This document shows, in pieces, positions 676 through 48,545 of a stretch of DNA of 64,000 nucleotides. The DNA comes from Schistocephalus solidus (Eukaryota; Platyhelminthes; Cestoda; Diphyllobothriidea; Diphyllobothriidae). The notes under the pieces were generated by a model. It searched no databases. It saw only the letters and a program-made list of their open reading frames with translations, and was not told the origin of the DNA. A program made the translations under genes and the position numbers. The stretch covers positions 124,001 through 188,000 of the forward strand of contig WEDG01000464.1 of assembly GCA_017591395.1 (NCBI GenBank), given 5' to 3'. Numbering within the stretch: the first letter of the stretch is position 1; the number at the start of each line of letters is the position of its first letter.

Positions 676-1040
676 ACCTAAGAAATTCTGCACTAATTAT
701 ACCTCCCCCTGCATCCTCCACGTGTAAACGCTCTCTCTTCTTTGCTTATCTTTTTAAGCAGTTTTTTCTCCTACCTTCTTTTTAAAAATGAAGGCCTATT
801 GAACTCTGCCTCAATTTTTAAGGTAGGAGCTTGTTTTCACTGCCTATTTTTCTATTTCACCTTTAATTTCAAAACATTGATAACTGTTGACCTAGCAGGA
901 CAAGTTCTGTCTACATTATTAAGTTTTTGTACATTTAATCTGCACACATTGTCATAACTTTATTTCGTTACTAATGTTTGTTTAGACAGTGCCTTGCCAG
1001 TGCTAACCAAATGTAAATTCTAAATTTAAAATAAACCATC
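676..1040 (+). mobile_element. Family B LINE 3' UTR fragment
   Basis: This matches the 3' end of the other B copies: the TATACCTCC...GCATCCTCCAC block, the U-loop hairpin (757-844), and the terminal ACAGTGCCTTGCCAGTGC block before an A/T-rich tail. An internal deletion near 744 joins the end of ORF2 directly to the 3' UTR. No coding capacity remains. Confidence 0.75.
757..844 (+). other. ENE-like U-loop hairpin (family B)
   Basis: GCAGTTTTTT then CTCCTACCTT on the 5' side face AAGGTAGGAG, a U-rich tract and ACTGC on the 3' side. The inner helix is 10 perfect pairs, the outer GCAGU/ACUGC 5 pairs, and two U-rich strands face each other between them. Confidence 0.55.
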
Positions 1041-2442: not shown

Positions 2443-4973
2443 AATTTTAGAATTTATATTTGGTAAGCACCGGCAAGGCACTGTCTAAGCAAACATGAGT
2501 AACGAAATAAAGTTAAGCCAATGTGTGCAGATAAAATGTACAAATACATAACTTGTCCTGCTATGTCAACAGTTAGCGATGTTTTGAAATTAATGGTGAA
2601 CTAGAAAAAAATAGGCAGTGAAAAAAACTCCTACCTTAAAATTGGAGGCAGAGTTTAAAAGGCCTTCATTTTTGAAAAGAAGGTAGGAGAAAAAAACTGC
2701 TTAGGAAAAAATGGTCAGGTGGTAGAGTAGGGTTATACTGCAGTAGCATTTCAGAATGAGATAATGAAACGTCGAGGTGATTCGTTCTTGATCATTTAGG
2801 CGTATGAAACAAAATCTCACCAAAATGCGCCAATGAACTTAAGTCCTCAGCATCATAGGATCCAGAATTGAATTCTGATGATGGTTAGTATCCAAAGAAA
2901 CGGTAGCATTTTAGACTGTGGACCACCGAATGTGTATGATCAAAGGAATTGCTCGTTTGAATGACTGGTGATATAAGGAGACATCATAGTTCATGGGCGA
3001 CTCAAAGTAGCGAAAATATAGTTTCAAGAGGGTCACTTAAATTCCCAATGGTCCTTTCTCCGAGTCATAGGGAAAGCTACTGGGAAAAGATGAAGAAAAT
3101 AAAAGGTTAATAGAATCAGTGTAAAGAAAAATGTGCAGTCTTCGCTTGAATGCAGATAGACTAGTTTACGACCTAATTCCAATTGGCAAGTTATTCCAAA
3201 GAAACCTATACCAAGAAGCAAAGAAGAGAGAGCGTTTACACGTGGAGGATGCAATAGGAAATATAATTAGTATAGAATTTCTTAGGTTGTAAGGAAGACT
3301 AACGGGGGTAATGACAGAAAGCTTGGAAAGAGTTAAACTATTTTTAAGTCGGAAAAGGAGACAAACGCCTGCTTCAAGTCTCCTGATCCAAAGAAATTTT
3401 AGCTTCGTTAGCTGGCATCTTGTTGAGTAGGAAGGTGTTGAAAGAGTTGGCAATAGGAGTTTTTTTGTGAAATATCTTTGGACAATTTAAATTTTTGAAT
3501 GGCTAGTTTCGTTCATTAAACCGAAGAAAGGACAGCAAAATTCAAGAATGGGAAGTACAAACATACGATAAAGTCTTAATTTAATTTCAGGAAGGTAGAA
3601 ATTATAAGAAATAAAGCCGCAAATCTGAGCAGCTTTTGCCAAAGTTATATCGGCATGAGGCGAAGATCTTATTTATTGGTGTAGCTTAAGCCCAAGTCAT
3701 TGATGAAGGAACATTCAATCATAGGACAACCTTCAAAATAGGAGGTTGCGGCAGTCTTACAGGCCCAAAACTCATGTAGCGACACTTAGTAGGTGAGAAC
3801 TCCATTAGCCATGTGGAGCTCCAGGCCGAAAGAGCGTCTAAGTCTGAATAAATTTGTTCTAGGCGCCGTTCAGTCGTAAAGTTAGAGAAGGAATACACGC
3901 ATTTGAGGTCATCAGCATAAATAAAAGATTGAGAATGTTTAACTATCGATGAAATATCATTTATATACAGTAAGAACAACAAAGGACCTCATATGGTGCC
4001 TTGAAGGACACCACTAACAATCGGGGTAGCGCTTGAGTATGAGGACCCTTTCTAAAACGTTTTGTTTTCGATCATTTAGGTATGATCTAATAAAGTCCGT
4101 AAGGGGACTACGAAATACTATAGCTTCTAGTTTAGCTAGAAATCGTTTATGAGGCACTTTATCGAATGCCTTACTAAGATCAAAAAAAGATAACTACTAC
4201 AGATTGATGATCATTATGGAGAGAGGTAAGTAGATTTAGAAAAGACATGTGGCAGGTTTCCCAAGAGTGGTCCGGTAAGAAGCCGTGTTGGGAAAAGTTG
4301 ATAATTTGATTGCTTATGCAAAAATCCGTTATTTGTTTTGCAATTAGTTTTTCGAAGAGTTTAGTAAAAGCGGGCGTTTTATGAACACCGCGATAGTTAT
4401 GAATGTCCTAGCAGGAACCAGATTTAAAACTTGTATTATAATAGACGTTTTCCAATAATCGGGGAAGAAACCATTTTCGAGAAATACTGAGAATAACTTA
4501 CAGGTGGAAAATCTCTTAACTGTTTAATAAGTGAGTTTGAAATGGTATCAGTTCCAACCAAATGTGAATTATTTTAGACGAGCTTTTTCTTTTTGAATAC
4601 GTGAAGGGCAGAAATTAATGTTTGTTAGAAGTGAATTTGAAAGCAGAAGAATTGTGATAATAGGGCTAGTTTCAGTGGTTAATTTGTTTGCAAAAAACGA
4701 ATTTAACAATTCTGCTTTGCCCAAATTGTCTGTAACAAATTGTTTGTTACATTCGAGTAAGGGCAGAGTTACATTCAGACGCGTAGCCGATGACCGAACA
4801 TTGAAGATTTGAGCAACAGATTTGGATGAATTGGCATCACTTAGTGCCCGAGACTCCCTACGCTTATCTCTCGCGAGCTTGATTTTCGATGCTAATTCAA
4901 ATATTTGTGCAATCCTTAAATGAACTGACAAAGAGCTTTTAGCTGAATCTTTAAGTTGGATACAAACCATCAC
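2443..4973 (-). mobile_element. Family B LINE copy (B3), 5'-truncated
   Basis: Reading right to left, the copy holds the EN-RT linker (4973-4569, with VHLRIAQIFELASKIKLA), the RT core (about 4560-3719, with LLFLLYINDIS and FIYADDLKCVY, the motif C aspartates intact), the thumb and C-terminal tail (3480-3166) and a 3' UTR. The 3' end is near 2443. A stop interrupts the usual GTVLGPLLF block near 3990. The copy is dead but retains the 3' hairpin. Confidence 0.75.
2615..2700 (-). other. ENE-like U-loop hairpin (family B)
   Basis: Reverse-strand copy of the module: GCAGT, U7, CTCCTACCTT, a loop with an apical stem, AAGGTAGGAG, U7, CACTGC. Both helices are intact. Confidence 0.55.
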
Positions 4974-8509: not shown

Positions 8510-8529
8510 GTCAGAAATAGTCAAAGACA

Positions 8530-10310: not shown

Positions 10311-10800
10311 GCAGTATTACTCTACTCTATAACCTGACCTTAGTTTCCTTAACAGTTTTACTCCTTCCTTCTTTTCGAAAATGAAGGCCTATTGAACCAT
10401 GCCTCCATTTTTAAGGTAGAAGTTTGCATTCTACTGCCTATTTTTCTATTTCACGTTTAATTTCAAAACATACATTTCAAAATATACAATTTATTTATCG
10501 CTATTTGTTGCCCTAGCAGGGCGATTTCTGTCTACATAGGTATTTGTACATTTTATCTGCACACATTTTCATAATTTTATTTCGTTACTAATGTTTGTTT
10601 AGACAGTGCCTTGCCGGTGCTAACCAAATATTAATTCTTTATTTAAAAAAAATTCTAAATTTTTAAAAGCATCTCCTCACCTTCTGTCTACATTACTCAG
10701 TATTTGTACATTTTATCTGCTCACATTGTCATAACTTTTTTCGTAATGTTTATTCAGACAGTGCCTTGCCAGTGCTTACCAAATGTAAATTCTTACTTCT
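10311..10800 (+). mobile_element. Two family B 3' UTR fragments in tandem
   Basis: 10311-10680 is a B 3' UTR through the TTAATTCTTTATTT tail. 10681-10800 repeats the distal part (TCTGTCTACATTA..., CAGTGCCTTGCCAGTGC). The first resembles the B tail at 27540-27890, including the TTTTAAAAGCATCTCCTCACC continuation. Confidence 0.65.
10352..10437 (+). other. ENE-like U-loop hairpin, degenerate (family B)
   Basis: The same layout as the other B copies, but the U-tracts are interrupted (TTTTA and TTTGCATT) and the outer helix starts ACAG. The apical ATGAAGGC/GCCTCCAT stem is retained. Confidence 0.4.
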
Positions 10801-12088: not shown

Positions 12089-14510
12089 TGCAAGATGGCG
12101 TCGACGTATCGGCCGTTATGTCTTAGAATATTGATCTGTCCGCTTAGCTGAAATGTCTCCAGCTTGCCCATAAAGATATCGGCTTGAAGAGGTCCAAGTG
12201 GCGAACCCATAGCAATGCCGTCTATTTGTCTGTAAATCTAGTTGTCAAAAAGGAACTGCACATTTAACGTGCATCGTAGTAATAATTCTTTCAGTGCATT
12301 TTTCAGTATTCCTATTTCTTACTTACTGGTCAATAGGAATTAACAGAGGTAATCGACTGTCTTAGTGACAGGGGCGTTTGAAAAAAGTGATGTGACATCC
12401 AAAGATAGCATCCTTGTGCCATTTAAGTTAAGATGGTTGACGTTTTCAATATATTCGAAGGTATCTCGGTAGCAACGTGGCGCTAGGTTACGTTGTACAG
12501 GCTTTAGTTTCACTGCTAACCAATTTGCTGTGGTATGGTAAGATCAAAATAGATAATTACTACCGATTAATTATCCTTAGGAAGAGAGGTAAGGAGATTA
12601 AGAAAATACATGTGGCAGGTTTCACAAGAGCCGTCCGGTAAAAAGCCGTGTTGGGAAAAGTTGATAATTTGATTGCTTATGCAAAAATTCTGTGATTTGT
12701 TTTGCAAATAGTTTTTCGAAGAGTTTAGCAAGAGAGGGTGTTTTATGAACACCGCAATGGTTATGAATGCCAGATCAGGAACCAGATTAAAAACCTGTTA
12801 TTATAATAGACGTCATCCAATAATCGGGGAAGAAACCGTTTTCGAGAAATACTGAGAATAATTTGCTTAGTAAAGGGGGAAAAACCTTTAACTGTTTAAT
12901 AAGTGAGTTTGGAATGTTATCAGTTCCAACCGAATGCGAATTTTTTAAGGCGAGCTATTTCTTTTTGAATAAGTGAAGGCGAGAAATTAATGGTTGTTAG
13001 AAGTGAATTTGAATTTAAATGCGAAAAAGCAGAGGAAATGAGGGAGTGAGGCTAGTTTCAGGGGTAAAGTGGTTGGCAAAAAATGAATTTAACAATTCTG
13101 CCTTGTCCAAATCCTCGGAAACGAATCTTTTGTTACAGTGGAGTACGGGCGGAGTAACATTCAGATGCTTAGCCGATGACCGAACACGGAGGATTTGAGC
13201 AACAGATTTGGATAAATTGGCATCACTTAGTACCCGAGACACCCTATGCTTATCTCGCGTGAAGGTAATTTTCGATGCTAATTCAAATATTTGTGCAAAC
13301 CTTATGTAAACTGACAAAGAGCTTTTAGCTGGATCTTTAAGCTGCTTCCATATTTTTTTCAGTCTGTGTTGGAGAAAATGTGGAACAGTAGATAAAAAGC
13401 TGTATTTGAGTTAAAAATCTTAAACGAGATAAAAGCCTAGATTTTTACTGTGAGGATCTGCAAGAGCTTAAGAAAAGATTTTGGATCGTTGATTGAAAAT
13501 ATACTAAGCCCATCTAGAGTGCTTACGAAATTATTTATTAATTCATGGCTTTTGTTAGCAAAGTCGAGGTTTTTGCATTATCACGATGGACATTTATAAT
13601 GAGAGGGTTGACATCATATGTAAAAATTTAATCAAAATGTTGTCATTTCTAGTCACTGAACTGACCAGTTGGGACGTGTTTGAAGTTTCTGAAGTTTTGG
13701 CGGAGAGGATTTTGTCTGGCTGTCAATGTATGGCTGATTAAAATCACCCACGATTATTTTGACATCAAAATGAGTCCCTGCAACTTTTTCAAAGAGTTCA
13801 CAGAGCTCGCTTTCATTGCCAGAATAACACGGAGGATTATAGACACAGCCAACTACCGCTTTTTTTATTGTGCGTGAGGATGACTGAAGCAAAGCATTCA
13901 TTTCCAGAAAAGGACGAAATGCTCAGCTGGAAAGGGAAATGTACAAAGGATGACTTAATATAAAGGAGGCAACCACAGCCAGGTTTTTCAGCGTGGTCGT
14001 GTCGGTACACATTGAAATTATCTATATTGGGCGTCGAGTCAGAAATAAGAGACTGAGCCCTGGATTCAGTGATGCACAACACTTCTGGATCAAGCTCAAA
14101 GGCTACTGTTCTAAGATCAGCCATCTTATTTACAACTGGTCTCGCATTGAGTGAAACTAAGCTGAGTGTATTTTATGGGCTGCAGGTTACGCTCATCCGT
14201 ATCTATGAAAAAGGAAGATTTAGTGGCAAGGAGGAAACCTGGAGAGAAGAAACAAAAGGGGGGAAACTAAATTGATCTGGTCTTCAATTTGTTCGGATAT
14301 CTCCGCCTTTTAAATCACTCAACGGATTCTGCAGGCATCAAGGGAGTATCTAGCTGCACCTTCCGCACTTCGGTGCTGATTCATGTGACTTCCGCGAAGC
14401 CTCCCGTTGGACCCCTCCAAGGGCGACAGTTTTTTCTCCTTTATATCACTGTGAGTTTTCTTTTCACTGTCTGATCTTTTTCAACTATGCTCCAGCTAAT
14501 TAACTAATAT

Positions 14511-14828: not shown

Positions 14829-14917
14829 AAGCAGTAAAAAAAACTCCTAGGGTTAAATCGGAGGCGGAGTTCGGCGAGCCGCCCATTTTAAAAAAATAGG
14901 AGAAAAAAAACTGCTTC
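14829..14917 (-). other. ENE-like U-loop hairpin (family C)
   Basis: GAAGCAGT, U-tract, CTCCTA ... TAGGAG, U-tract, ACTGCTTC on the minus strand. The outer helix has 8 perfect pairs, longer than in family B, and is followed inside by two facing U-tracts of about 7-8 and the inner CUCCUA/UAGGAG helix. Confidence 0.6.
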
Positions 14918-20524: not shown

Positions 20525-21735
20525 GATAAATAACTAAATAAATAATTAATTGTATATTTAAGGCCCAGAGAGCCCCGTCATTTCAAACTTAGTATCGCGG
20601 TATAAATAAATACAAAGTGGATAATTGCTGCTCTATGTGAGCAGCCATATTAACAGCAGAAATTAACAATATGGTAGTCATATCCGATTCAGAACGATTT
20701 GCCATTTTCAAAACAATAGACAACAATCTTTAACATAAACGGTGAAAAAGAAAAGAAGCGGTTAAAAAAACTCCTACGGTTAAATCAGAGGCGGAGTTCA
20801 GCGAGTCGCCAATTTAAAAAAAAATAGGAGAAAAAAACTGCTTCACTAAAACATTAATAGCTAGGTGCAATGGGATAGATCTGTGATGATGCTGACAACG
20901 TATGAGGGTTCGGAACGCTCCTTGTCGTGTGAGAGATAATATAGCAGTCAGAGCTACTGTTTGTAACCACCAGTGGAGGTGAGAGAGGATTGACTCATCG
21001 TGGACACCAGGGTCAAAACGAAGACGGGACAGTAGAGGTCATGAGATCATCATTAAGATGCGACCTTGCCAACTGCATAGTCCACCAATCAAAGAGGCAA
21101 GACTATCAGAACCCGCCTTGATCCTCAACTGAACCTGGAGACCATCGTCGGGGTTGCAAAAGTGGAGGAAAGTACCAAGGTTGTCAAGACTTGGCGATGC
21201 TAGTTTAAAATGAGGGGGGGCAAAAAGTAACTGCAACGATTGACTCTGCAGAGGATGATGTACATATAATAAGAGATCAATATAAGATTGACTCTGCAGA
21301 GGATGATGGATATATAATAAGAGACCATTATAATATCAAGGGTACTGCCTCAAATACCAGGAGGACCCTTTTTCGAAATCCAAAAAGTTGCGTGTTAGGA
21401 AGGAAACAGACAATAAGGACTTTATATCTTCCGAAGTTAAATGTTTGCGTTACTTTGTTTTGAAAATAGCTAATGTGGCCGACAACCTAATTTGCAGTGG
21501 AAGATTATTCTAGGTAAAGCATATTTAGAGGCGAAAAACTGAGACCAGTTAGTTGTGGAGCTAAGGGGTGGTGAAATGATCATGGAGGAATTACGAGTGG
21601 CATAGGGTCGATCTACCAGAGTAAGAGCGTTAATTCGTGGGAGATTTGGGCTAGAGTTAACGCGAAACAGGAAGCAGAGACCGGCTTCGAGTCTTCTAAC
21701 CCATAGAAGTTTTATGTTTGGTAACTGATAAAAAG
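20525..21735 (-). mobile_element. Family C LINE 3' fragment (C2)
   Basis: The 5'-truncated C copy starts in the ORF2 tail (KLLWVRRLEAGLCFLFRVNSSPN at about 21720-21640). It includes a 3' UTR with a 48-bp tandem duplication around TTGACTCTGCAGAGGATGATG (about 21239-21335), then the U-loop hairpin and the GGGCCTTAAATATACAATT end at about 20545. Confidence 0.75.
20755..20844 (-). other. ENE-like U-loop hairpin (family C)
   Basis: GAAGCAGT, U7, CTCCTA ... TAGGAG, U7, AACCGCTTC. One A-to-G change relative to C1 weakens the outer helix by one pair. The inner helix and both U-tracts are intact. Confidence 0.55.
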
Positions 21736-22225: not shown

Positions 22226-23425
22226 TTAGAATATCAGTATTTTTCAAATCAATAATACGAAAGGAAAATTGTCACATGTGACGTTTTATGAAATAAAAGA
22301 TGAATTTTGCTGTCCTTTCTTCGGTTTACTGAACGAATCTTCTTTGCTTCTAGGTATAGTTTTCTTTGGAATAACTTGCCAATTGAAAGTAGATCGTTAA
22401 CTAGTCTATCTGCATTCAAGCGAAGACTGCACATTTATCTTAACACAGATTCTATTAACCTTTTATTTTGCTTATCTTTTCTCAGTAGCTTTCTCCATGA
22501 CTCGGAGAAAGGACCATCGGGAATTTGAGTGACCCTCTTGAAACTATATTTTCGCTACCTCGAGTCGCCCATGAACTATGATGTCTACTTGTATCACCAG
22601 TCCTCCAAACATTGACGTCATTCGGACGTACACATTCGGTAATCCACAGTCTAAAATGCTACCGTTTCTTTGGATACTAACTGCTTCTTGGATACTTACT
22701 GCTTCTTTTCTAGTTAACCGTTTATGATAAAGATTGTTGACTATTGTTTTAAAATTGGCAAATCGTTCTGAATCGGATATGCCTACCATATTTTTCATTT
22801 CTGCTGTTAATATGGCTGCTCACATAGTGCAACAATTATCCACTTTGTATTTATTTATACCGCGATACTAAGTTTGAAATGACGGGGCTCTCTGGGCCTT
22901 AAATATACAATTTATTTTAACCATCATCAGAATTCAATTCTGGATCCTAAGATGCTGAGGACTAAAGTTCATTGAAGCATTTCGTGAGATTTTGTTTCAT
23001 ACGCCTAAGTGATCAAGAACGAATCACCTCGACGTTTCAGTATTTCATCCTGAAATGCTACTACAGTATTACCCTACTCTTCCACCTGACCATTTTTTCC
23101 TAAGCAGTTTTTTCTCCTACCTTCTATTAAAAAATGAAGGCCTATTGAACTCTGCCTCCATTTTTATGGTAGAAGTTTTTTTCACTGTCTATTTTTTCTA
23201 GTTCACCATTAATTTTAAAACATCGCTAACTGTTGACATGGCAGGACAAGTTATGTATATGTACATTTTATCTGCACACATTGTCATAACTTTATTTCGT
23301 TACTAATGTTTGCTTAGACAGTGCCTTGCCGGTGCTAACCAAATATAAATTCTAAATAAATAAATATTTGAAATATATGAAGGGGCTCTCTGGGCCCTAA
23401 ATATACAATTTATTTATTTATATGT
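22226..23425 (+). mobile_element. Composite of family B and C 3' ends
   Basis: 22290-22677: family B ORF2 tail (FASRYSFLWNNLPIESRSLTS) plus 3' UTR. 22678-22920: family C 3' end with only the 3' arm of its hairpin (ACTGCTTC). 22921-23368: family B 3' UTR including a complete hairpin. 23369-23425: a C terminal tail. Repeated insertion into earlier tails explains the mosaic. Confidence 0.65.
23104..23189 (+). other. ENE-like U-loop hairpin (family B)
   Basis: GCAG, T6, CTCCTACCTT ... ATGGTAGAAG, T7, CACTGT. Two changes weaken the inner helix and one the outer; the facing U-tracts are intact. Confidence 0.5.
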
Positions 23426-27588: not shown

Positions 27589-27674
27589 GCAGTTTTTTCT
27601 CCTACCTTCGATTCGATAATGAAGGCCTATTGAACCATGTCTCCATTTTTAAGGTAGGAGTTTGTTTTCACTGC
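27589..27674 (+). other. ENE-like U-loop hairpin (family B)
   Basis: GCAG, T6, CTCCTACCTT ... AAGGTAGGAG, TTTGTTTTC, ACTGC. The inner helix is 10 perfect pairs and the outer 5. The 3' U-tract has one G. Confidence 0.6.
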
Positions 27675-28390: not shown

Positions 28391-29500
28391 AGATAGGACA
28401 TTGTTCAAGTCTCTGCTTCCTGTTTCGCGTTAACTCTAGCCCAAATCTCCCACGAATTAACTCTCTGACTCCGGTAGATCGCCCCTATGACACTCGTAAT
28501 TCCTCCATGGACATTTCACCACCCCTTAGCTCCACAAACTAACCGGTCTCAGTTTTTGCCTCCAAATATGCTTTCATATGGAATAATCTTCCACTGCAAA
28601 TTAGGTTGTCGTCCACATTAGCTATTTTCAAAACAAAGTTACGCAAAAATTTAACTTCGGAAGATATAAAGTCCTTATTGTCTGTTTCCTTCCCTAACTC
28701 GCAACTTTTGGATTTCGAAAAGGGTCCTCCTGGTATTTGAGGCAGCTCCCTTGATATTATAATGGTCTCTTATTATATGTCCATCATCCTCTGCAGAGTC
28801 AATCGTTGCAGTTACTTTTTGCCCCCCTCCTTTTAAACTAGCATCGCCAAGTCTTGACAACCTTGGTACTTTCCTCCGCTTTTGCAACCCAAACGATGGT
28901 CGCCAGGATCTGTTGATGATCATGGCTGGTTCTGATGTTTTCGTCTCTTTGATTGGTGGACTATGCAGTCGGCAAGGTTGCATCTCGATGATGATCTCAT
29001 GACCTCTACTGTCCCCTCTTCGTTTTGACCCTGGTGTCCACGATGAGTTTGTCCTCTCTCACCTCCAATGGTGGTTAAAAACAGTAGCTCTGACTGCTAT
29101 ATTATCTCTCACACGACTAGGAGCGTTCCGAACCCTCATACGTTGTCAGCAACATCACAGCACTATCCCATGGCATCTAGCTATTTATGTTTTAGTGAAG
29201 CAGTTTTTTTCTCCTATTTTTTTAAATTGGCGGCTCGCTGAACTCCACCTCCGATTTAACCGTAGGAGTTTTTTTACTGCTTCTTTTCTAGTTCACCATT
29301 TATGTTAAAGATTGTTGACTATTGTTTTAAAAATGGCAAATCGTTCTGAATCGGATATGCCTACCATATTGTTCATTTCTGATGTTAATATGGCTGCTCA
29401 CATAGTGCAGAAATTATCCACTTTGTATTTATTTATACCGCGATACTAAGTTTGAAATGACGGGGCTCTCTGGGCCTTAAATATACAATTTATTTATTTA
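28391..29500 (+). mobile_element. Family C LINE 3' fragment (C3)
   Basis: It starts in the ORF2 tail (CFLFRVNSSPN-type sequence at 28405, PLSSTN.PVSVFASKYAFIWN near 28530). A long 3' UTR follows with the U-loop hairpin (29197-29283), and the copy ends at GGGCCTTAAATATACAATT plus (TTTA)n near 29500. Confidence 0.75.
29197..29283 (+). other. ENE-like U-loop hairpin (family C), best copy
   Basis: GAAGCAG, T7, CTCCTA ... TAGGAG, T7, ACTGCTTC. The outer helix is 8 perfect pairs and the inner CUCCUA/UAGGAG 6; two seven-U strands face each other exactly. The apical part AAATTGGCGG faces CCTCCGATTT with one mismatch. Confidence 0.65.
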
Positions 29501-31360: not shown

Positions 31361-32790
31361 CTATGAAGACTATTTATTGCCAGTTAACAGGCAAGGTCAA
31401 ACGAGATATACAGTAGAGGGTCGAGCTGACAATGTAAAAAACTCCTGATCGTTTTTTCAAGTGTTTTCAGGAGAAAAAACTGCAGATTATTTAGAGATTA
31501 AACTTCAGGACAGGGAAGTGTTGACACAGGTGCACGGTGAAGTACTTCTCTTTTCAGTGTTATGGATCCGGTTTTCTGCACCAACATGTATTTCGGTGAA
31601 CGGCTGTTCACTGTCGACTGAGAAATAAGCCGATTAAGACCTGCAGAGCCAGCATGAAGTCCAGCACAGGATTCAGAGTCCATGAATGCCATCAGTACCG
31701 AAGAGAGCTTCCACAGAGTCAGCACTCAAAATTTTGGAAGGTGTCCTGAATGTAGAAAACTAGAGCCAGCTCTCGTAAACAAAGGATAGTTTTGCTGAAT
31801 TTTGATACTTCTGCTGAGCTTATTCCAGAATGCTATAGCGGTAACCGAAAAAAAACTGACGGTATCTAACGGTGGGTGCCAGAGGAAGAAATAAAAATAC
31901 ATCTCGATGACTGGTGCGTCGAGAGTGGTCATGATGCCTCGGAGATGTAAGGGTGTTAAACGTTCAACTGTTTAAAAGTTTAAACAGTAAAAATAGTCTC
32001 TTCTGTAATCTGCGAAGTCACAACGGGTTGAGGCTTGTAAGCTCACAGCGTTGTTGGTAGTACAGTTTTCTGAGTTTGTATTTTTTGTCTTTTTGTAAAG
32101 AAGTGCTTGACTGATTCTATCTTCTTTCGTTCACTAGCGCGCAGAAGGTTAAATAGAATGAACAGTATTCCAGACTAGTTTTGACATACATTTTATAAAG
32201 GCTGATTCTAATATTGACGGTTTTGAAATTTCTGAGAATAAACCCAGTAGTTTGGCATGCTTTCGAGACAATCAGGGCACGGTGCTTGGACAGATTAAGA
32301 CTTCTAGAATATGATATGCCCAGATCCTTTATAACTCCGGGCACATTACGGTCGTGACCCTCTAAGCTTAGATGGGGCTGATGTTTGTCGCCAATAACCA
32401 AAACGGAGATCTTGTGCCATGAAAGCGAATGGGCCCATGTACGACACCACTGAGCGAAGGCCTGAAGATCGTTTTTTACGAGCTCAAGCACGATGTTGCG
32501 ATCGACCGGTTTATATCAATAGGTAACATTTAAATCGTCGGCATACATAAAGGGCCAACCATACTGAAAAATCAGGAAAATAGCTGAAAAAAGGCCAAAT
32601 GTGTTACATCAACTCCTCACAGGCATAAGGTTGGACATATCATCAGAAATTTTAACTCTTTGCGATAGAGCACTGACGTACGAGGATATTAAGTTCAGAA
32701 GTGTGTTACGTCCACTCCTCACAGGCATAAGGTTGGACATATCAGCGGACGTTTTAACTCATTGCGTTAGAGCACTGACTAAGGAGGATA
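31361..32790 (-). mobile_element. Family D LINE copy (D1), 5'-truncated, with a tandem duplication
   Basis: Right to left: the RT region (32790-32117, with LKNDLQAFAQWCRTW, VPGVIKDLGISYSRSLNLSK and YVKTSLEYCSF), the C-terminus (31932-31498) and a 3' UTR with hairpin ending near 31363. A 100-bp unit of the RT is duplicated in tandem (32601-32700 and 32701-32790, both with CTCCTCACAGGCATAAGG). D2's tail is inserted directly at 32790. Confidence 0.75.
31424..31486 (-). other. ENE-like U-loop hairpin (family D)
   Basis: CTGCAG, U6, CTCCTGA ... TCAGGAG, U-tract, ACATTGTCAGCT. The inner helix (here CUCCUGA with AUCAGGAG) is retained; the outer helix is weakened by substitutions relative to D3. Confidence 0.5.
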
Positions 32791-32866: not shown

Positions 32867-32932
32867 AAGCTGACAGTGAAAAAAACTCCTGATCGTTGTT
32901 TCATGTGTTTTCAGGAGAAAAAACTGCAGCTT
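32867..32932 (-). other. ENE-like U-loop hairpin (family D)
   Basis: AAGCTGCAG, U6, CTCCTGA ... TCAGGAG, U7, CACTG, T, CAGCTT. The outer helix is 10 pairs with one bulged U; the inner core is CUCCUGA with UCAGGAG. Confidence 0.6.
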
Positions 32933-38099: not shown

Positions 38100-39113
38100 G
38101 TGCTACAAGCTAGAGACAGCGGTTTTGCAATTTACACCGTTTACTTCGATTTCACTAAGGCTTTTGATCGTGTTGACCATGATCTCCTACTGCTGAAACT
38201 TGCCTCCTTCGGCATAGGTAACAAGCTTCTGAACTTAATATTTTCCTATTTGAATGCTCGCGCACAACGGGTTAAAATTTCTGATGTTATCTCCAACCCC
38301 ACGCATGTGAGGAGCGGAGTTATTCAGGGCAGCGTGCTCGGCCCGCTTCTATTTTGCCTCTTTGTCAACGATGTTCCTGATTGTTTTCAGTATGGTAGGC
38401 CCTTTCTGTACGCTGACGATTTAAAAGTTGCCTATCGATATAAACCGATTGATCGCAACATCGTGCTTGAGCTCTTAAAAACGGATCTTCAGGCCTTCGC
38501 TCAGTGGTGTCGCACATGGCGCCTCTCACTTTCTTGGCAAAAGTGCTCCGTGATGGTTATTGGCGACAACCATCAGCCCCACCTAAGCATAGACGGTCAC
38601 GATCTAAACGTGCCCCGACTTATAAAGGATCTGGGCATATCATACTCTAGTAGTCTTAATCTGTCAGAGCACTGCGCCCTGATTGTCTCGAAAGCACGCC
38701 AAACTACTGGGTTTATTCTCAGAAATTTCAAAACCGTCAAAATTCGAATCAGCCTCTATAAAATGCATGTCAGGCCTAGTCTGGAATACTGCTCGTTTCT
38801 ATTTAGTCTTCTGCACGCTAGTGAACGAAAGAAGATAGAATCAGTCCAGCACTTCTTTAAAAAAAGAGTTTTCTATTCAGATCACCGAAACCTGTCCTAT
38901 CACCAACGCTGTGAGCTTACAAGCCTTGACCCGCTGTGGCTTCGCAGATTACAGAAGGGACTATTTTTACTGTTTAAACTACTAAACAGTCGTACATTTA
39001 ACCCCCTTACATCTCTGAGGCACCTCGACCACTCTCGGCGCACCAGTCATCGAGATGTATTTTTATTTCTTCCTTTGGCATGCACGGATAAATACCGACA
39101 GTTTTTTCGGTAA
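38100..39113 (+). pseudogene. Family D ORF2, reverse transcriptase and C-terminus
   Basis: 337 open codons: YTVYFDFTKAFDRVDHDLLL (motif A), LNARAQRVKISDV, VRSGVIQGSVLGPLLFCLFV, FLYADDLKVAYRYKPID (motif C aspartates intact), FAQWCRTWRLSLSWQK, LIKDLGISYSSSLNLSEHCA, MHVRPSLEYCSFLFSLLHAS, KKIESVQHFF and CELTSLDPLWLRRLQKGLF. The upstream part (37860-38099) lies in another frame after a one-base loss near 38060: the protein reads GFLEKGLVKLAS instead of GFLEKRSCDTCQ as in D2. The true protein is longer at both ends. Confidence 0.8.
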
Positions 39114-39481
39114 ACGCTATAGCAATCCGGAATAAGTTACCTAGAAGTATCAAAATTCAGCAAATCTATCCCTTGTTTACGCGAACTGTCACTAGTTTTC
39201 TACATTCAGGACACCTTCCAAAACCTTTGGGTGCTGACTCTGTTGAAGTTCTCTTCGGTACTGATGGCGTTCACGGACTCTGAATCCTGTGCCGGTCTTC
39301 ATGCTGAGGCGAAAAATTACTGGCTCTGCAGACCTCAATCGGCTTTTTTCTCAGTCGACAGCGAACAGCCGCTCGCCGACATACCTGCTGGTGCAGAATA
39401 CCGGATGCGTAACACTGAATGGAGAGGTTCTTCACCGGGCACCTGTTAACGCGTCCCTGTCGAGAACTTTAATTACTCAAT

Positions 39482-39546
39482 AAGCTGCAGTTTTTTCTCC
39501 TGAGAACACATGAAACAACGATCAGGAGTTTTTTTCACTGTCAGCT
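39482..39546 (+). other. ENE-like U-loop hairpin (family D), minimal form
   Basis: AAGCTGCAGT, T5-6, CTCCTGA, an 18-nt loop, TCAGGAG, T7, CACTG, T, CAGCTT. The outer helix is 10 pairs with one bulged T, the inner 7 pairs. At 65 nt it is the shortest and cleanest version in the window. Confidence 0.65.
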
Positions 39547-39748
39547 TGACCCTCTACTGTATATATATATTTTTGACCTTGCCTGTAAACTGGCAATAAA
39601 TAAATAAAATAAAATAATGGATATTAGTTTACTTAATATAAACAATACGGGGTTGTGGAATACATTCAATCAGGGGTTATGCAGGTTGTCAAGATGGGGT
39701 TTTCGAGTGGTGGTGGCTAGTCCTGGGTGGCATTCTAAAAATAGACAG

Positions 39749-40656
39749 TTAAGCAATATGAAAGCAAAGCAACTGACCATTAAAGGGTATTTCAGGGACG
39801 TGCCTTTGAACCCTCTTGCCGGCGGCGTCGAGGAACCTTTTCAGGCGCCTTATAAATGCGGCCTCCAAATAATAAAGGTTTAGACGGCCGCCGCCATTCC
39901 ACCTAACGTACAGCTCTAAATAGTTTGAAATTTACAAGAGATGTTATAACCCACCTGTAATAAGTTCATAAATTTTTGATCCTGATAATGCTTCTTTTTC
40001 TTTCCGTCCTTGGAAATTCAGTTCCAAGGCAATAGCATCATCAAAAATCGAATAAAAAAATGCGCTTAACGAAGTCATCCGTATTTCGGCCATCGAGGCA
40101 GAGTAAATATGACTCCTAATTGAAAATGTATATAATTGACGGGTACTTACCAGTTCCCTGCGGAAATTTGGGTCCAGCAGCCGTTCATGTAAGTGTCTGA
40201 AAGCAGCATGGCTGGCAATCGGCTGTGCGACTGGATTTCCAGGCATCTCAATACCCTGCTGAATGGGAGCTGTACTTGTTGTCGGTTGAGTATGCTCCAC
40301 CGTTCGCAGTTTTGTTAAAATTCGACGTTGTGTGGCCTGCACTTGTAGCAGCCGTTTTCGGAAGTAGGTTAAGACGTCGAAATACTTCTGTTTGAAATTC
40401 CGATTGCGAATGTGGTTCAGATGCGTCAAGGACAATGAATACTCACTAGATAACAGTCTAACCTGCTTTCTGAGGATGCCTACTGGAAGACAAAGTTTCC
40501 TCTGATGTCTCAGACACGGCATTTAATTGTTCTTCCTATTCATACTTATATGTACAACATGCTACCTACCGGTGATAGTGGAGGTGTCTCGTCCCACAAG
40601 TAGGAGTCCTCATCCCTGTAACGACGTGGTCGCTTTGATTGCCGCTGTGAGCTCAT
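39749..40656 (-). pseudogene. DUF4806-like gene, four small exons, one frameshift
   Basis: Exon 1 is 40656-40570 (M-SSQRQSKRPRRYRDED, a nuclear-localisation-like basic start) or extends to 40566. Exon 2 ends at 40151 (start 40501 or 40482, depending on the junction) and encodes a helical stretch (KQKYFDVLTYFRKRLLQVQ) and the start of the domain (FRHLHERLLDPNFRREL). Intron 2 (40116-40150) is 35 nt with GTAAGT...TTAG. Exon 3 (40115-39955) continues ESYLLCLDGRNTDDFVKRIF and, after a one-base slip in a T7 run, ALELNFQGRKEKEALSGSKI with YELI. That order matches my knowledge of DUF4806 (PF16064): FxxLExxLxDxxFRxxL, then NwkGrkgKkaf. A fourth exon (39915-39749) is tentative. The T-run shift may be decay or an assembly error. 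Confidence 0.5.
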
Positions 40657-41286: not shown

Positions 41287-41540
41287 CTGCAGAGGTTGCG
41301 ATTGCTTTTACGCAGCATTTTCCTTAATTTACCTAGCTAGCTTTCAAACGGAAAGGACGAGAATGAATCTGGAGGCCCATGTCGCTGAACATCGGCGTCA
41401 TTTATCCGATTTATCATTAAACCTATTTATAATTCCGTATATATAAGGGAGATAGGCAGAGCCTTTGAAAACCCTTTTTACAGATAGACGCTAGCAAAAC
41501 AAGCAAATGTTACATGGCGATAGTCGTTTTAGTATATCAA

Positions 41541-43770
41541 TCATTGCTGTCGACTCGATATATTTCCATCAAGTAAAAATGCATCAAGTCTTCTTTTAAA
41601 CATTTCAACGCTTTCAGCCCCAACAACTGAGGCTGGCAGTTTGTTCCATTCGTCAATCACTCGTTGGGAAAATAAGTTGGCCCGCACTTCAAGTTTGGTG
41701 TGATTTCTTTTCAGTTTGTATTGGAGACCTCGGAGACTTGTCATGTTTGCCAATTCAAAAACGTTGGCCGTCTGAAGATCACAATCAACTCCTCTGACCA
41801 GTTTGAAGACTAAGATCATATCCCCTCTGTATTGCCTATAAGAAAGAGGAAAAATTTAAGTCTTTCTAGGCGGCCCTCATAGGGTAGGCATTCCAATCCG
41901 CTGACTAGTTTCGTTGCCCTCCGTTGAACTTTCTCCAGCAGAGCGTAGTCATGTTTCTTCCAAGGGCGCCACGCCTGAACGCAATATTCCAACACCGGCC
42001 GGATAAATGTTCCAAACACGCGCCCAAAAAGCTCTCCGTCAAAATTAACGAAGGACCTCCTGATTGCGTCTTAGATACACATAGCTTTCTTTGCGATATT
42101 CGCACAGTGCGACGATAATTTTAGAGTTGGTGATATCCATATACCCAAGTCCTTTAGAATGTTTACCTCCTGGAGTTGGTGACCACTGATGGAGTACCGG
42201 TATTCAAATCTAATCAGCCTTCTGGAACTAGACCGCAGTCGGATTATTTGGCATTTGTTAAGATTAAGGTTCAGCAGCCACTCATCACACCATGTTTGCA
42301 AGCGATCTAAGTTTTGTTGTAATTTTCGCGCATCCTCCGGTTTTTCAATCGAGTTCCATAACTTCAAATCGTCAGCGAACATTACCTTCTCGCATGTCAG
42401 ACAATCCAGGCAGTCGTTTACGAATATCAGAAACAAAATGGGACCCAGAACGCTGCCCTGCGGAACTCCACTGTGAACGGTTTCCCAGTGAGACTTGGTG
42501 TCTCTGATACAAACACGCTGGCGCCTGTCTGTGAGAAATTCGGCCAACCATTTGAGTAGGTTGCCAGTCACACCCATTTGATGGAGCTTAAAGATCAGAC
42601 GTTTGTGTGGAACCCTGTCAAAGGCTTAGCTAAAGTCAATGTAGACCGCATCGACTGACAAACCCATTTCTAATGATTTTGTCCAACGTTCCATGGATGT
42701 GAGCAAGTTTGTGAGGCAGGATCGACCACTTCGAAATCCATGTTGATATGAACTAAGCAAGTTATTCTCTTGAAGATGCCTCATAAGTTCCGTTTTGATT
42801 ATCTTCTCCATCATTTTGCAACAAATACTTGTGAGGCTGACTGGTCGGAAACTGTTTGGTGATGTCCTCTCTCCTCCTTTATAGATGTGGTTATGTTGGC
42901 TATCTTCCACTCGGTAGGCAGAGCCCCCGCCTCCATCGAATTTTCAAATATCTTGGAGAGCGGAGAGGCCAGCTGTTCTGTGAGTTCATTGAGAACTTTT
43001 GCAGATATACCATCTGGGCCAGGTGATTTAGTGGGCTTTAGCTGTTTCAGAGTTTTTATTACTGTGTCCATTGGGAACGACACCGTGCTTATTTTGTTTG
43101 TAGATGTGGCAGTACTGTAGTATTCATCCTCGTCAAAAAATGGTTCCTCGGTATACACGGACATAAAGAAATTGGATAAGAGGCAGGTCTTATCAGAGTT
43201 ATCAGTTAACCTGTTTCCCTGATTGTCTTTAAGACAAGGAATGCAGTCGCGATTTCGTTTTGCCTTATTAACGTAAGCATAAAACCTTTTCGAATTTCTT
43301 GGTATGTCTTTAACTATTTCTGACTCAAAGGCTGGTCTTTCTTTTCTCAGAAGATTCCGACACCGATTTCGCTGTTTCTCAAAAGCGGAAAAATGTTCAC
43401 GTTGTTGATATCTGGCATATGTTCTCCACAGTCTTCTTTTTTTCTTAAGATTCCTTTTTATTTCCGATGTCACCCACTCGGGTTGGGAGACGCATGATCG
43501 CCTTTTAAGTGGGCAGAATGTCTCTACCAATTGGTGAATCAATTTACTAATTAAGAACCAGGCAGCATTAGGGTCAGGTACATGTGCAGGGCTCCAGTTT
43601 ATCCCATTAAGTAATTCTTTCATTTTGGGAAAATCCCCTTTCCATACATTTCTCTGCCTAACTGCACGACGTTTGGGTACAGAAAAATGACTGTACTCCC
43701 AAGCAAGAACACAATGATCACTTCGTCCAAGCGGCACGTAAGAACTTAATGCAAGAATGCAATTGTCGTC
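41541..43770 (-). pseudogene. Family A ORF2: end of EN, linker, RT and C-terminus (A2)
   Basis: 43737-42811: PLGRSDHCVLAWEYSHF (EN SDH motif), WVTSEIKRNLKKKRRLW, TKSPGPDGISAKVLNELTEQ. 42910-42626: NSFRPVSLTSICCKMMEKII, YQHGFRSGRSC, VDAVYIDFS followed by a stop where SKAFDRVPH continues. 42577-42071: SGVPQGSVLGPILFLIFVND, FADDLKLWNSIEKPEDARKL, LDRLQTWCDEWLLNLNLNKC. 42019-41541: RPVLEYCVQAW, RVIDEWNKLPASVVGAESVE. Four breaks; otherwise the most complete family A RT region. Confidence 0.8.
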
Positions 43771-43841
43771 TCTACTAATTTTATTTTATTTATTTATTGC
43801 CAGTTTACAAGCAAGGTCAAAAAAATATACAGTAGAGGGTC

Positions 43842-43908
43842 AAGCTGACAGTGAAAAAAACTCCTGATCGTTGTTTCAGGTGTTTTCAGGAGAAAAAAAC
43901 TGCAGCTT
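43842..43908 (-). other. ENE-like U-loop hairpin (family D)
   Basis: AAGCTGCAGT, U6, CTCCTGA ... TCAGGAG, U7, CACTG, T, CAGCTT; identical in layout to D3. Both helices are intact. Confidence 0.6.
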
Positions 43909-44530
43909 ATTGAGTAATTAAAGTTCTGGATAGGGACGCGTAAACACAGGTGCCCGGTAAAGAACCTCTCAATTCAGTGTTACGGATCCGATATTCTGCA
44001 CCAGCAGGTATTTAAGCGAGCGGCTGTTCGCTGTCAACTGAGAAATAAGCCGATTGAGGTCTGCAGCGCCAGTAATTTTTTCCCTCAGCATGAAGACCGG
44101 CACAGGATTCAGAGTCCATGAACGCCATCAGAACCGAAGAGAGCTTCAACAGAGTCAGCACCCAAAAGTTTTGGAAGGTGTCCTGAATGTAGAAAACTAG
44201 TGACAGTTCGCGTAAACAAGGGATAGATTTGCTGAATTTTGATACTTCTAGGTAACTTATTCCGGATTGCTATAGCGTTTACCGAAAAAACTGTCGGTAT
44301 CTATCTGTGCATGCCAAAGGAAGAAATAAAAATACATCTTGATGACTGGTGCGCCGAGAGTGGTCGAGGTGCCTCAGAGATGTAAGGGGGTTAAATGTAC
44401 GACTGTTTAGTAGTTTAAACAGTAAAAATAGTCCCTTCTGTAATCTGCGAAGCCACAGCGGGTCAAGGCTTGTAAGCTCACAGCGTTGGTGATAGGACAG
44501 GTTTCGGTGATCTGAATAGAAAACTCTTTT

Positions 44531-45292
44531 TTAAAAGAAGTGCTGGACTGATTCTATCTTCTTTCGTTCACTAGCGTGCAGAAGACTAAATAGAAACGAG
44601 CAGTATTCCAGACTAGGCCTGACATACATTTTATAGAGGCTGATTCGAATTTTGACGGTTTTGAAATTTCTGAGAATAAACCCAGTAGTTTGGCGTGCTT
44701 TCGAGACAATCAGGGCGCAGTGCTCTGACAGATTAAGACTACTAGAGTATGATATGCCCAGATCCTTTATAACTCCGGGCACGTTTAGATCGTGACCATC
44801 TATGCTTAGGTGGGGCTGATGGTTGTCGCCAATAACCATCACGGAGCACTTTTGCCAAGAAAGTGAGAGGCGCCATGTGCGACACCACTGAGCGAAGGCC
44901 TGAAGATCCGTTTTTAAGAGCTCAAGCACGATGTTGCGATCAATCGGTTTATATCGATAGGCAACTTTTAAATCGTCAGCGTACAGAAAGGGCCTACCAT
45001 ACTGAAAACAATCAGGAACATCGTTGACAAAGAGGCAAAATAGAAGCGGGCCGAGCACGCTGCCCTGAATAACTCCGCTCCTCACATGCGTGGGGTTGGA
45101 GATAACATCAGAAATTTTAACCCGTTGTGCGCGAGCATTCAAATAGGAAAATATTAAGTTCAGAAGCTTGTTACCTATGCCGAAGGAGGCAAGTTTCAGC
45201 AGTAGGAGATCATGGTCAACACGATCAAAAGCCTTAGTGAAATCGAAGTAAACGGTGTAAATTGCAAAACCGCTGTCTCTAGCTTGTAGCAC
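44531..45292 (-). pseudogene. Family D ORF2 reverse transcriptase (D4)
   Basis: 253 open codons nearly identical to D3 38100-38860: YFDFTKAFDRVDHDLLLLKL, VIQGSVLGPLLFCLF, FLYADDLKVAYRYKPIDRNI, WRLSLSWQKCSVMVIGDNHQ, VPGVIKDLGISYSSS. The same GFLEKGLVTLASS frameshift upstream as in D3 suggests that D3 and D4 share a recent defective master or were copied in trans. The frame ends at QHFF where D3 continues. Confidence 0.8.
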
Positions 45293-45569
45293 ATGATCGA
45301 AGAAAGAGAGCTGGCAAGTGTCACAAGACCTTTTTCGAGAAAACCATGCTGAGCCGCATTAAGTAGGTTATTTTCTCTTAGGTGACACATCATCTTTTCC
45401 TTGATCAAGGACTCGAAGATCTTCGAGACTGCTGGTAGTGTATTTATTGGTCTAAAGTCGTCCAATGACGTAGGTCGGCCGTGTTTCGGAATAGGCAGTT
45501 TGTGCGATTCCTTCCATAAAGTAGGGAAAGTTTCACTTTCAAGAGCAAGATTAAATATCTTAAATATCT

Positions 45570-46190
45570 TAGATCCAAACAGCTTAACTGCTGCCCATTT
45601 CGGAACCGCGTCTTCATTGTGACATGTTGGGTAAGAAACTCGTCATTTACCAACTGAAGTAATTTCTTTTCGAATGAATTTTCCGATCGCGAGCAGTACA
45701 TTGACACCCAATCGATATCGGGAGCGTTGAAATCTCCAAGTATTAATAAATTTTTGCTACGGCAGATTTGCTTTACCTCTGTGATGAGTGCTTCGTCCGT
45801 GTCCGTTCGCTGTCCTGGGGGTCCATATACCACGGCAATATGGAGGTCTGGTTGGTTTGGGACTTTCAGTTTACAACAAAGTATTTCGCAAGACGAGATC
45901 CTATTTGGCAAGGGCCCATCCGGAATGAAGTCAATGCCTTCTCGTATAAACATTGCGATTCCACCACCCCTACGTCCGTTTCTATCCATGCGGATAAGCT
46001 GAAAACCGTCTATTCGGACTCCTGTGTCTGCGATTTGTTCATTAAACATGTTTCAGTTAGAGCTATGAAGTCAGGTTGTAAATGGTCCACGACCAGTTTA
46101 ATTTCATCAATTTTGTTCAATAGACTCTGCACATTTGTGTACATCATTTTAATCTTGTTTCCTTGCCTTGACTTCTGAAGACTTTTAGTT
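45570..46190 (-). pseudogene. Family A endonuclease, 5' part (A2)
   Basis: 46190-46050 region: KIKMMYTNVQSLLNKIDEIK and VVDHLQPDFIALTETCL (Trp of TETW changed to Cys). 46049-45570: MDRNGRRGGGIAMFIREGID, QPDLHIAVVYGPPGQRTDTD (Arg of YRPP changed to Gly) and LLILGDFNAPDIDWVSMYC. A frameshift separates the two. The domain is then cut by D4; the SDH motif resumes at 43737. Confidence 0.75.
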
Positions 46191-47664: not shown

Positions 47665-48545
47665 TAATAACTTAAACCTGACCAAGTCTTCTGTCATTAC
47701 CTCCGTTCGTCTTCCTTATAGCCTAAGAAATTCTGCATTAATTATACCTCCTCCTGAATCCTCCACGAGTAAACGCTGCCTATTCTTTGCTTGTAGGTAT
47801 AGCTTTCTTTAGAATGACTTTCAAATTGAAATAAGTTAGTTAAATAGTCAATCTGCATTCAAACGAAGACTGCACATTTATCTTAACACTGCTTCTATTC
47901 AACTTTTATTTTTCTCATCTATCCAAGCCGCTTTCTCCATGACATGGAGAAAGGATAATGGGGAATTAAAGTGACCCTCTTGGAACTATTTTTTTCACAA
48001 CATCGAGTACACCAGGAACCATGATTTCTCCTTATACCACCAGTCATTCAAAAGACAAGTCATTCGGACGAACACAGTTTAAAATGCTGCCGTTTCGTTG
48101 GATACTAACCATCATCAGAATTCAATTCTGGACCCTAAGATGGTGAGGACCCAAGTTCACTGACGCCTTTGTTTCATGCGCCTTGGTGATCAAGAACAAA
48201 CCATATTGACATTTATTATCTCATTCTGAAATGCTAATGCAGTATTAACCTTCTCTACCACCTTACCGTATTTTCCTTAGCAGTTTTTTCTCCTATCCTC
48301 TATTCGAAAATGGAGGCCTACTGAACTCTGCCTCCATTTTCAAGGTAGGCAATTTTTCACTGCCTATTTTCTAGTTCACTTTTAATTTCAAAACATCGCT
48401 AACGGTTGCCCTCACAGGACAAGTTCCGCGAACATTATTAAATATTTGTACATGGTATCTGCACACATTGTCATAACTTTATTTCATTACTAATGTTTGT
48501 TGAGACAGTGCCTTGCCAGTGCTATCCAAATACAAATTCTAAATA
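47665..48545 (+). mobile_element. Family B LINE 3' fragment
   Basis: ORF2 tail (KPDQVFCHYLRSSSL-type sequence, then decayed FLWN.L region near 47800), 3' UTR with the U-loop hairpin and the terminal ACAGTGCCTTGCCAGTGC block near 48505-48530. Confidence 0.7.
48280..48364 (+). other. ENE-like U-loop hairpin (family B)
   Basis: GCAG, T6, CTCCTATCCT ... CAAGGTAGGC, AATTTTTC, ACTGC. The inner helix is weakened, but the apical AAATGGAGGC/GCCTCCATTT stem is a perfect 10 pairs here, where other B copies have one mismatch. Confidence 0.5.

What the first reader, a model, noticed from the sequence alone, without database searches (positions are those of the whole stretch)
39482..39546. ENE-like triple-helix element in LINE 3' UTRs
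About thirteen 3' UTR copies in the window share one architecture: outer helix GCAGU/ACUGC, two facing U-tracts (5-8 U each), inner helix CUCCU/AGGAG, then a loop. A U-rich internal loop clamped by two G/C-closed helices is the hallmark of ENEs (KSHV PAN RNA, MALAT1), which clasp an A-rich 3' end in a U-A.U triple helix and block decay. ENE-like structures are known from transposon RNAs of plants and fungi; I know of none described in flatworm LINEs. Copies: 757-844, 2615-2700, 10352-10437, 23104-23189, 27589-27674, 48280-48364 (B); 14829-14917, 20755-20844, 29197-29283 (C); 31424-31486, 32867-32932, 39482-39546, 43842-43908 (D). The role may instead be RT recognition of the 3' end, and the genomic tails are (AAAT)n rather than pure A.
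Basis: partly seen in the sequence, partly recalled or inferred. Interest (0 to 1): 0.9.

Follow-up and report, generated by a model that had tools for sequence, protein, structure and literature searches.

The report
U-clasp hairpin in flatworm LINE tails
Several jumping-gene (LINE) families in a flatworm genome end in the same folded RNA hairpin with two facing runs of U, which looks like the known poly(A)-clasping stability element of viral and plant RNAs, but clasping has not been shown here.

Summary
All 13 listed copies hold the described motif (three with a mutated inner helix); a 14th lies at 14423-14472. GGAG-U7-8-(C)ACUG, on the strand that encodes the reverse transcriptase (RT). The RTs fall into three groups about 33-48% identical, and the UTRs around the element are mostly no more alike than shuffles. 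The outer parts of both helices change by compensation: the true pairing of family arms ranks 1 of 14,400 swaps. The core's 3' arm occurs 1,722 times exactly, against 1 for the backward pattern. Both helices are therefore real and constrained, in a unit separate from the predicted terminal hairpin beside the tail. The best explanation is an ENE-like stability element that clasps poly(A). Oligo(A) binding and RNA stability could not be tested. The E and F copies read encode no A-run above 4 downstream, so an encoded A-tract (MALAT1 style) is excluded there and a post-transcriptional poly(A) tail would be needed. Filed as ENE-like, not as a proven ENE: a new variant of a known kind, in animal LINEs.

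The parts
39482..39547 (+). ENE-like element, family D (index copy). P1 39482-39491 with 39537-39547 (bulged U 39541); 5' U-tract 39491-39496 (its first U may pair in P1); P2 39497-39503 with 39522-39528; 3' U-tract 39529-39535 plus C 39536
39579..39596 (+). predicted terminal hairpin of family D, UUGCC-UGUAAACU-GGCAA, next to the tail; compensatory change in family F (AUGCC...GGCAU)
39597..39617 (+). AT-rich repeat tail (AAAT/AAAAT) of this family D copy
38100..39113 (+). LINE reverse transcriptase ORF fragment upstream of the index copy (RVT_1); fixes the sense strand
31424..31486 (-). ENE-like element, family D (diverged subfamily)
32867..32932 (-). ENE-like element, family D
43842..43908 (-). 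ENE-like element, family D
757..844 (+). ENE-like element, family B (3' tract interrupted)
2615..2700 (-). ENE-like element, family B
10352..10437 (+). ENE-like element, family B, decayed
23104..23189 (+). ENE-like element, family B (mutated inner helix)
27589..27674 (+). ENE-like element, family B
48280..48364 (+). ENE-like element, family B, decayed 3' arm
14829..14917 (-). ENE-like element, family C, outer helix GAAGCAGU/ACUGCUUC
20755..20844 (-). ENE-like element, family C
29197..29283 (+). ENE-like element, family C
14423..14472 (+).

Best explanation
The element is an ENE-like RNA stability element in the 3' UTR of several LINE families. Shown: a hairpin with an outer helix (P1), two facing U-tracts (5' side 5-6 unpaired nt, 3' side 7-9 nt, U plus usually one C), an inner helix (P2) and a variable loop; it lies about 50-205 nt upstream of the tail repeat, on the RT-coding strand, separate from the predicted terminal hairpin at the tail. 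Inferred: in the LINE RNA the two U-tracts receive a stretch of poly(A), the 3' tract by Watson-Crick and the 5' tract by Hoogsteen pairing (U-A.U triples), P1 and P2 clamp the ends, and the RNA 3' end is shielded from deadenylation and decay. The A partner would be the post-transcriptional poly(A) tail, since the E and F copies read encode no A-tract. The terminal hairpin and repeat tail are left for the reverse transcriptase.
For: Architecture by folding in 10 of 13 window copies and in 5 of 5 family representatives (z -2.8 to -6.7). Covariation: the true assignment of arms is the best of 120 for P1, the best of 120 for P2 and rank 1 of 14,400 jointly; e.g. P1 position 5 is G-C in B, C and F and A-U in E; P2 position 6 is A-U in B and C and G-C in D and F. 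Conservation: the CAG, CUCC, GGAG and ACUG letters are the same in all 15 representatives of five families, while the UTR outside the element is within the range of shuffles in 17 of 20 comparisons. Carrier RTs are far apart: C-D 33-47%, B-D 35-45%, D-E 33%, C-E 48% in tblastn pieces. U-tracts kept in 52 of 55 similarity-fetched copies. The pattern around the 16-nt 3' arm occurs 916+806 times, backward control 0+1. Tails differ between families while the core does not, which fits a universal partner better than a family-specific one. The same arrangement in a retrotransposon 3' UTR has a tested precedent in the Arabidopsis LTR element Evade, where U-to-C changes in the loop abolish the triplex melting transition and the adjacent G-C pairs are essential (PMC12501189, Results part 1 of 2 read).
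Against: No oligo(A) binding, decay or probing data. Genomic tails are not poly(A) in the copies read: B (TAAA)n, C (TTTA)n, D (AAAT/AAAAT)n, E (ATACTG)n, F (ATT)n; the longest A-run downstream of the element is 3 in 15 of 15 E copies and 3-4 in 15 F copies, so whether these RNAs carry poly(A) near the element is unknown. The arm letters next to the tracts never vary in the representatives, which is more constraint than a clamp needs and suggests that a protein may also read them. The 3' side is 1-3 nt longer than the 5' side. In the arm-swap tables several single arms pair better with another family's arm (B in P1; C, D and E in P2), and the five families are not fully independent (B-C and D-F are related), so the ranks overstate the evidence. 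No relevant Rfam match.
Confidence: 0.55

Rival explanations
1. The hairpin is a second recognition or packaging site for the LINE's own ORF2 protein (bipartite RT recognition), not a poly(A) clasp.
For: It lies in LINE 3' UTRs, is kept in successful families, and its arm letters next to the tracts do not vary in the representatives. Stringent LINEs are known to need their 3' tail hairpin (PMC4176376, abstract and introduction).
Against: The families already have a predicted hairpin directly at the tail, and it differs between lineages as expected for RT coevolution (D and F share it, with a compensatory pair), whereas this core is the same in RTs only about 33-48% identical. Family A, whose RT is 42-59% identical to that of E, lacks the element in the three copies read.
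Confidence: 0.2
2. A host-protein site: a U-rich or double-stranded RNA binding site, for example an export element, in which the facing U-tracts and the fixed CAG/CUG and CUCC/GGAG arms are the binding surface.
For: The invariant arm letters beside the tracts, and independence from RT lineage and tail type.
Against: Two facing U-tracts of near-fixed length clamped by helices with G-C pairs is the layout described for poly(A)-clasping elements (PMC8704770 passages); nothing here points to a named protein.
Confidence: 0.18
3. Inherited relic: the families share an ancestral 3' end that is no longer, or never was, functional.
For: The genomic copies are mostly dead insertions, and differences inside a family are largely neutral decay.
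Against: The core arms stay while the UTR on both sides is saturated in most comparisons, and the changed helix positions keep pairing.
Confidence: 0.05

Closest known systems
ENE of viral and cellular long noncoding RNAs (KSHV PAN, MALAT1, MEN-beta)
   Same: Hairpin with an internal loop of two U-rich strands between helices, near the RNA 3' end; the 5' U-strand runs straight out of P1, as described for the MALAT1 Hoogsteen strand (PMC11411715, passages).
   Different: Lies in LINE RNAs of an animal; arm letters fixed across families; A partner not identified; an encoded A-rich tract as in MALAT1 is absent in the E and F copies read.
ENE of the Arabidopsis LTR retrotransposon Evade (Copia93)
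   Same: Retrotransposon 3' UTR, U-tracts flanked by pairing sequences (PMC12501189: abstract, introduction, Results part 1 of 2 and Discussion read).
   Different: Evade has four U-rich tracts and is an LTR element of a plant with tested oligo(A) melting, stability and mobility effects; here one pair of tracts, non-LTR elements of a flatworm, nothing tested.
ENEs of plant and fungal transposons (about 200; Tycowski, Shu and Steitz 2016)
   Same: Transposon RNAs with U-rich internal loops. From recall of that abstract, predicted triplex stacks do not exceed five triples; here the unpaired 5' tract is 5 nt (B, D, F) or 6 nt (C, E).
   Different: That paper is not held. As cited in PMC12501189, its motifs are mostly from plants and fungi and strongly associated with LTR elements; from recall, the only animal there was one fish.
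3' tail hairpins of stringent LINEs (UnaL2, ZfL2-1, ZfL2-2)
   Same: Conserved RNA hairpin in a LINE 3' UTR.
   Different: Those are tail hairpins bound by ORF2 protein; the present families have a predicted hairpin of that kind as well, separate from the U-clasp.

Membership tests
ENE (poly(A)-clasping triple-helix element) | Hairpin with an internal loop, both strands primarily U | tested here: met
   5 of 5 family representatives; both tracts >= 5 uninterrupted U in 52 of 55 similarity-fetched copies and 78 of 88 motif-found copies (biased towards intact motifs)
ENE (poly(A)-clasping triple-helix element) | Loop closed by helices with G-C pairs on both sides | tested here: met
   P2 begins C-G; P1 reads U-A then G-C from the loop. 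Helices supported by arm-swap covariation
ENE (poly(A)-clasping triple-helix element) | Position near the RNA 3' end, downstream of the RT, on the coding strand | tested here: met
   one RT-linked copy per family checked for strand, B, C, D, E, F; tail repeat about 50 nt downstream in D, 59-72 in 14 of 15 F copies, 126-127 in 15 of 15 E copies, 163 in one B copy, about 205 in one C copy by reading
ENE (poly(A)-clasping triple-helix element) | Available A-rich partner (poly(A) tail or encoded A-tract) | tested here: inconclusive
   No encoded A-run above 4 in 15 E and 15 F copies; AT-rich tails of 12 D copies have A-runs of 1-8. Poly(A) of the RNA itself cannot be seen in genomic copies
ENE (poly(A)-clasping triple-helix element) | Oligo(A)-dependent U-A.U triple helix | not testable with these tools
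   needs melting, native gel or probing
ENE (poly(A)-clasping triple-helix element) | Raises RNA level by blocking deadenylation and decay | not testable with these tools
   needs reporter and decay assays
ENE (poly(A)-clasping triple-helix element) | Match to a curated RNA family (not defining) | tested here: not met
   only a tRNA at gathering score in the window, nothing relevant at E<=10 for 39400-39650; whether Rfam holds an ENE family was not checked
Stringent-type LINE | Family-specific hairpin beside a short-repeat tail | tested here: met
   by single-sequence folding next to five different tail repeats; D-F compensatory pair; B and C hairpins not tested further
Stringent-type LINE | ORF2 protein binds the tail hairpin | not testable with these tools
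   needs a binding assay

The most novel reading that the evidence does not exclude
A LINE-borne ENE lineage in an animal: a poly(A)-clasping unit kept in, or passed between, three lineages of stringent-type LINEs that do not use poly(A) for priming. The clasp would protect the RNA and at the same time fold the poly(A) tail away, so that target-primed reverse transcription starts at the family's own hairpin and repeat; that would explain why copies end in (ATACTG)n or (ATT)n although the RNA carries poly(A).
Probability: 0.25. Interest if true: 0.88.

Novelty: new variant of a known kind. Interest (0 to 1): 0.74.

Why it matters
If it clasps poly(A), triple-helix stabilisation extends to non-LTR retrotransposons and to an invertebrate, in a genome with over 1,700 exact copies of the core's 3' arm. 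It gives a natural series (five families, same core, different helices, loops and tails) for testing what a poly(A) clasp needs. It also makes a question testable: how stringent LINEs, whose genomic tails are short repeats, handle the poly(A) end of their RNA. Tapeworms are reported to lack a canonical piRNA pathway (start of the abstract of PMC6880638 as seen in the listing), so RNA decay may matter more as a control on their transposons; this last link is speculation.

Tried and rejected
RT-recognition as the sole role: weakened by the separate terminal hairpins. Encoded A-tract partner: rejected for the E and F copies read. Artefact of T-rich DNA: rejected by Markov and backward-pattern controls (one control hit in one setting). 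A global-alignment comparison of UTRs was dropped because the loose gap costs gave 71-77% for every pair; one search replaced it. RT identities: the two E copies differ there by 51%, yet their DNA is 95.0% identical over 1,779 bases, so that table, made from broken copies stitched on the D protein, understates identity and I use the tblastn pieces instead; its tree is given no weight. Presence outside this genome: a gapped pattern of the core gave 0 in viral contigs and 5 in the bacterial and archaeal genome contigs; 4 of those 5 (L007, L008, L009, L011) score 16-20 bits with model R1 and L010 is not listed at E<=1, so they are treated as background. Other flatworm genomes could not be searched. 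L033:2558-2659 (26.6 bits with R2) was looked at and left open; L034:7780 is a decayed C copy. Possible further families in the genome-wide list (5 regions fetched) looked like variants or fragments of F, B and D. Rows dropped before the count of 88: motif rows with more than 5 errors, the bacterial loci L007-L011, and L001 and L035 as duplicates of window copies; decayed copies such as 10352 and L034 fail the fuzzy match and are not among the 88. B and C labels printed were partly wrong and were redone. One search stopped with an error before the C and D tail distances, so those are read.

Full report
What is there. The window is 64 kb of a 603.7 Mb genome. The family D reverse transcriptase (38100-39113) is closest to proteins of the tapeworms Schistocephalus solidus (74-88% over 28-63% of the query); Dibothriocephalus latus is 72% over 38%. 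A diphyllobothriid-type tapeworm is therefore likely, by inference. The region is packed with LINE copies.

The 13 listed elements are real. One RT-linked copy per family was checked for strand, and the U-tracts are on the strand that encodes the RT: B (RT pieces 4254-3109 and element 2615-2700, both minus), C (RT 17507-15474 and element 14829, both minus), D (RT 38100-39113 and element 39482, both plus), E (RT at L029 83-1180 and element 1577, both plus) and F (RT C-terminus at L029 9019-8885 and element 8417, both minus). Folding gives outer helix P1, facing U-tracts, inner helix P2 in 10 of 13 window copies, the other three having mutated inner arms.

More families. A covariance model from the 13 copies found a 14th in the window. 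In 200 kb of the same contig, 9 of the 10 hits with E<=1 were judged real on inspection: 5 strong and 4 weak, the weak ones forming two new families, E and F. In a further 30 kb, 5 of 8 hits were judged real, one of them badly decayed. A second model listed 29 matches in 294 kb: 14 in the window, 13 clear ones elsewhere, one decayed C copy and one open weak case. Genome searches scored only the best 40 of 781 first-look candidates for D, of 2139 for F, of 1924 for E and of 3633 for C. The listed D copies are 96-100% identical to the query, E 98-100%, C 95-100% and F 87-100%, so D, E and C look young. A pattern of 30 places around the 16-nt 3' arm occurs 916 plus 806 times, with 0 and 1 in the backward control; the first 100 places are listed and include arms of all five families.

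Anatomy by family. P1: B GCAGU/ACUGC; C GAAGCAGU/ACUGCUUC; D AAGCUG-CAGU/ACUG-(U)-CAGCUU; E AAGGGC-GACAGU/ACUGUC-(U)-GCUCUU; F CAGGC-GGCAGU/ACUGCC-(A)-GCCUG. P2: B CUCCUACCUU/AAGGUAGGAG; C CUCCUA/UAGGAG; D CUCCUGA/UCAGGAG; E CUCCU/GGGAG; F CUCCUGAAUA/UAUUCAGGAG. Unpaired tracts in the folded representatives: 5' side 5 nt (B, D, F) or 6 nt (C, E); 3' side 7 (C), 8 (B, D, F) or 9 nt (E). By eye the loops are unrelated between B/C, D, E and F. Tails in the copies read: B (TAAA)n, C (TTTA)n, D (AAAT/AAAAT)n, E (ATACTG)n, F (ATT)n. Distance from element to tail repeat: about 50 nt in D, 59-72 in 14 of 15 F copies, 126-127 in 15 of 15 E copies, 163 in one B copy, about 205 in one C copy by reading.

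Tests. (a) If the helices are real, a family's 5' arm should pair with its own 3' arm. Duplex energies put the true assignment first of 120 for P1 (-65.0 against a mean of -45.4 kcal/mol), first of 120 for P2 (-54.8 against -42.2) and first of 14,400 jointly. (b) With the element cut out, best local scores of UTR stretches between families lie within the range of 100 shuffles for 17 of 20 comparisons; the exceptions are D-F upstream (35, shuffle maximum 13), D-F downstream (22, maximum 15) and B-C downstream (16, maximum 14); C-E upstream equals its maximum (15). In the same call the core arms score 9-14 (5' arm, 14-16 nt long) and 9-16 (3' arm, 15-17 nt long); the losses are tract-length differences and, for F, the decayed L029 copy that was used. 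(c) Tract retention: both tracts of at least 5 U in 11 of 11 D, 15 of 15 E, 14 of 14 C and 12 of 15 F copies that were fetched only by similarity to a whole query, 52 of 55. In the larger set found by fuzzy motif it is 78 of 88 (B 11 of 15, C 18 of 19, D 18 of 18, E 19 of 20, F 12 of 16), a set biased towards intact motifs. In young dead copies this describes their recent master elements, not selection on each copy. (d) Distance of the carriers, by tblastn pieces: C-D 33-47%, B-D 35-45%, B-C 64-71%; D-E 33% over 303 columns, C-E 48% over 85, F-D 71% over 45. So the carriers form three groups (B/C, D/F, E). Family A, 42-59% identical to E, has no element in three copies read, so the unit can be missing from a relative of a carrier. 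The percentages and tree are set aside because they understate identity.

What separates it from RT recognition. Stringent LINEs are recognised through a hairpin in the 3' tail (PMC4176376, abstract and introduction). The families here have a predicted hairpin directly beside the tail repeat. D and F share one, UUGCC-UGUAAACU-GGCAA against AUGCC-UGUAAACC-GGCAU, with a compensatory pair, whereas B, C and E have others. The terminal hairpin seems to follow the RT lineage, the U-clasp core does not. This is an argument, not proof.

What speaks for a poly(A) clasp. The layout, two U-strands in an internal loop of a hairpin near the RNA 3' end, is how ENEs are described (PMC8704770, passages). In MALAT1 the Hoogsteen strand is directly connected to P1 (PMC11411715, passages), and here the 5' tract follows P1 without a spacer. 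Evade of Arabidopsis gives a functional precedent in a retrotransposon (PMC12501189). What speaks against or is missing: no A-tract is encoded in the E or F copies read, poly(A) on the RNA is unknown, the arm letters next to the tracts are invariant, and no binding or decay data exist.

Novelty. [quoted passage not shown] Full-text searches for ENE or triple helix with transposon, LINE, non-LTR, flatworm, tapeworm or planarian terms listed no paper whose title or abstract start describes one in a LINE or a flatworm; only open-licence papers are searched, the listings show only the top rows, and the 2016 survey itself is not held. I therefore call it a new variant of a known kind, with its membership in ENEs unproven.

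Noticed in passing
window 7148-10295, 41428-46500 (minus), 51140-52157: LINE family A (endonuclease and RT ORFs, pieces about 95-98% identical between copies) has a short 3' UTR and no U-clasp element in the three 3' ends read.
   Followed up: partly
L033:2558-2659: Single weak match (26.6 bits, model R2) with an outer helix around GGCAGA/UCUGC and U8 facing a U-rich strand; possibly another family or chance.
   Followed up: partly
genome-wide list, for example C29:2691-2720 and C266:214971-215000: A variant of C has the extra C before ACUG that B, D, E and F have (TTTTTTTCACTGCTTC), which the C copies in the window lack.
   Followed up: no
window 47582-47654 (minus): tRNA-Thr (AGT) gene, found by ARAGORN and Rfam.
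   Followed up: no
window 39944-40522 (minus): 192-aa ORF with a sub-threshold match to DUF4806 (E 0.0041), between two LINE D copies.
   Followed up: no
homologue list (P0009, P0010, P0012): RT proteins at 42-43% identity are filed under Streptococcus dysgalactiae; probably eukaryotic DNA in a bacterial assembly.
   Followed up: no
window 54187-55071 and 56145-56843 (plus): Long ORFs outside the LINE cluster, the second with a poly-proline run; they may be exons of host genes.
   Followed up: no
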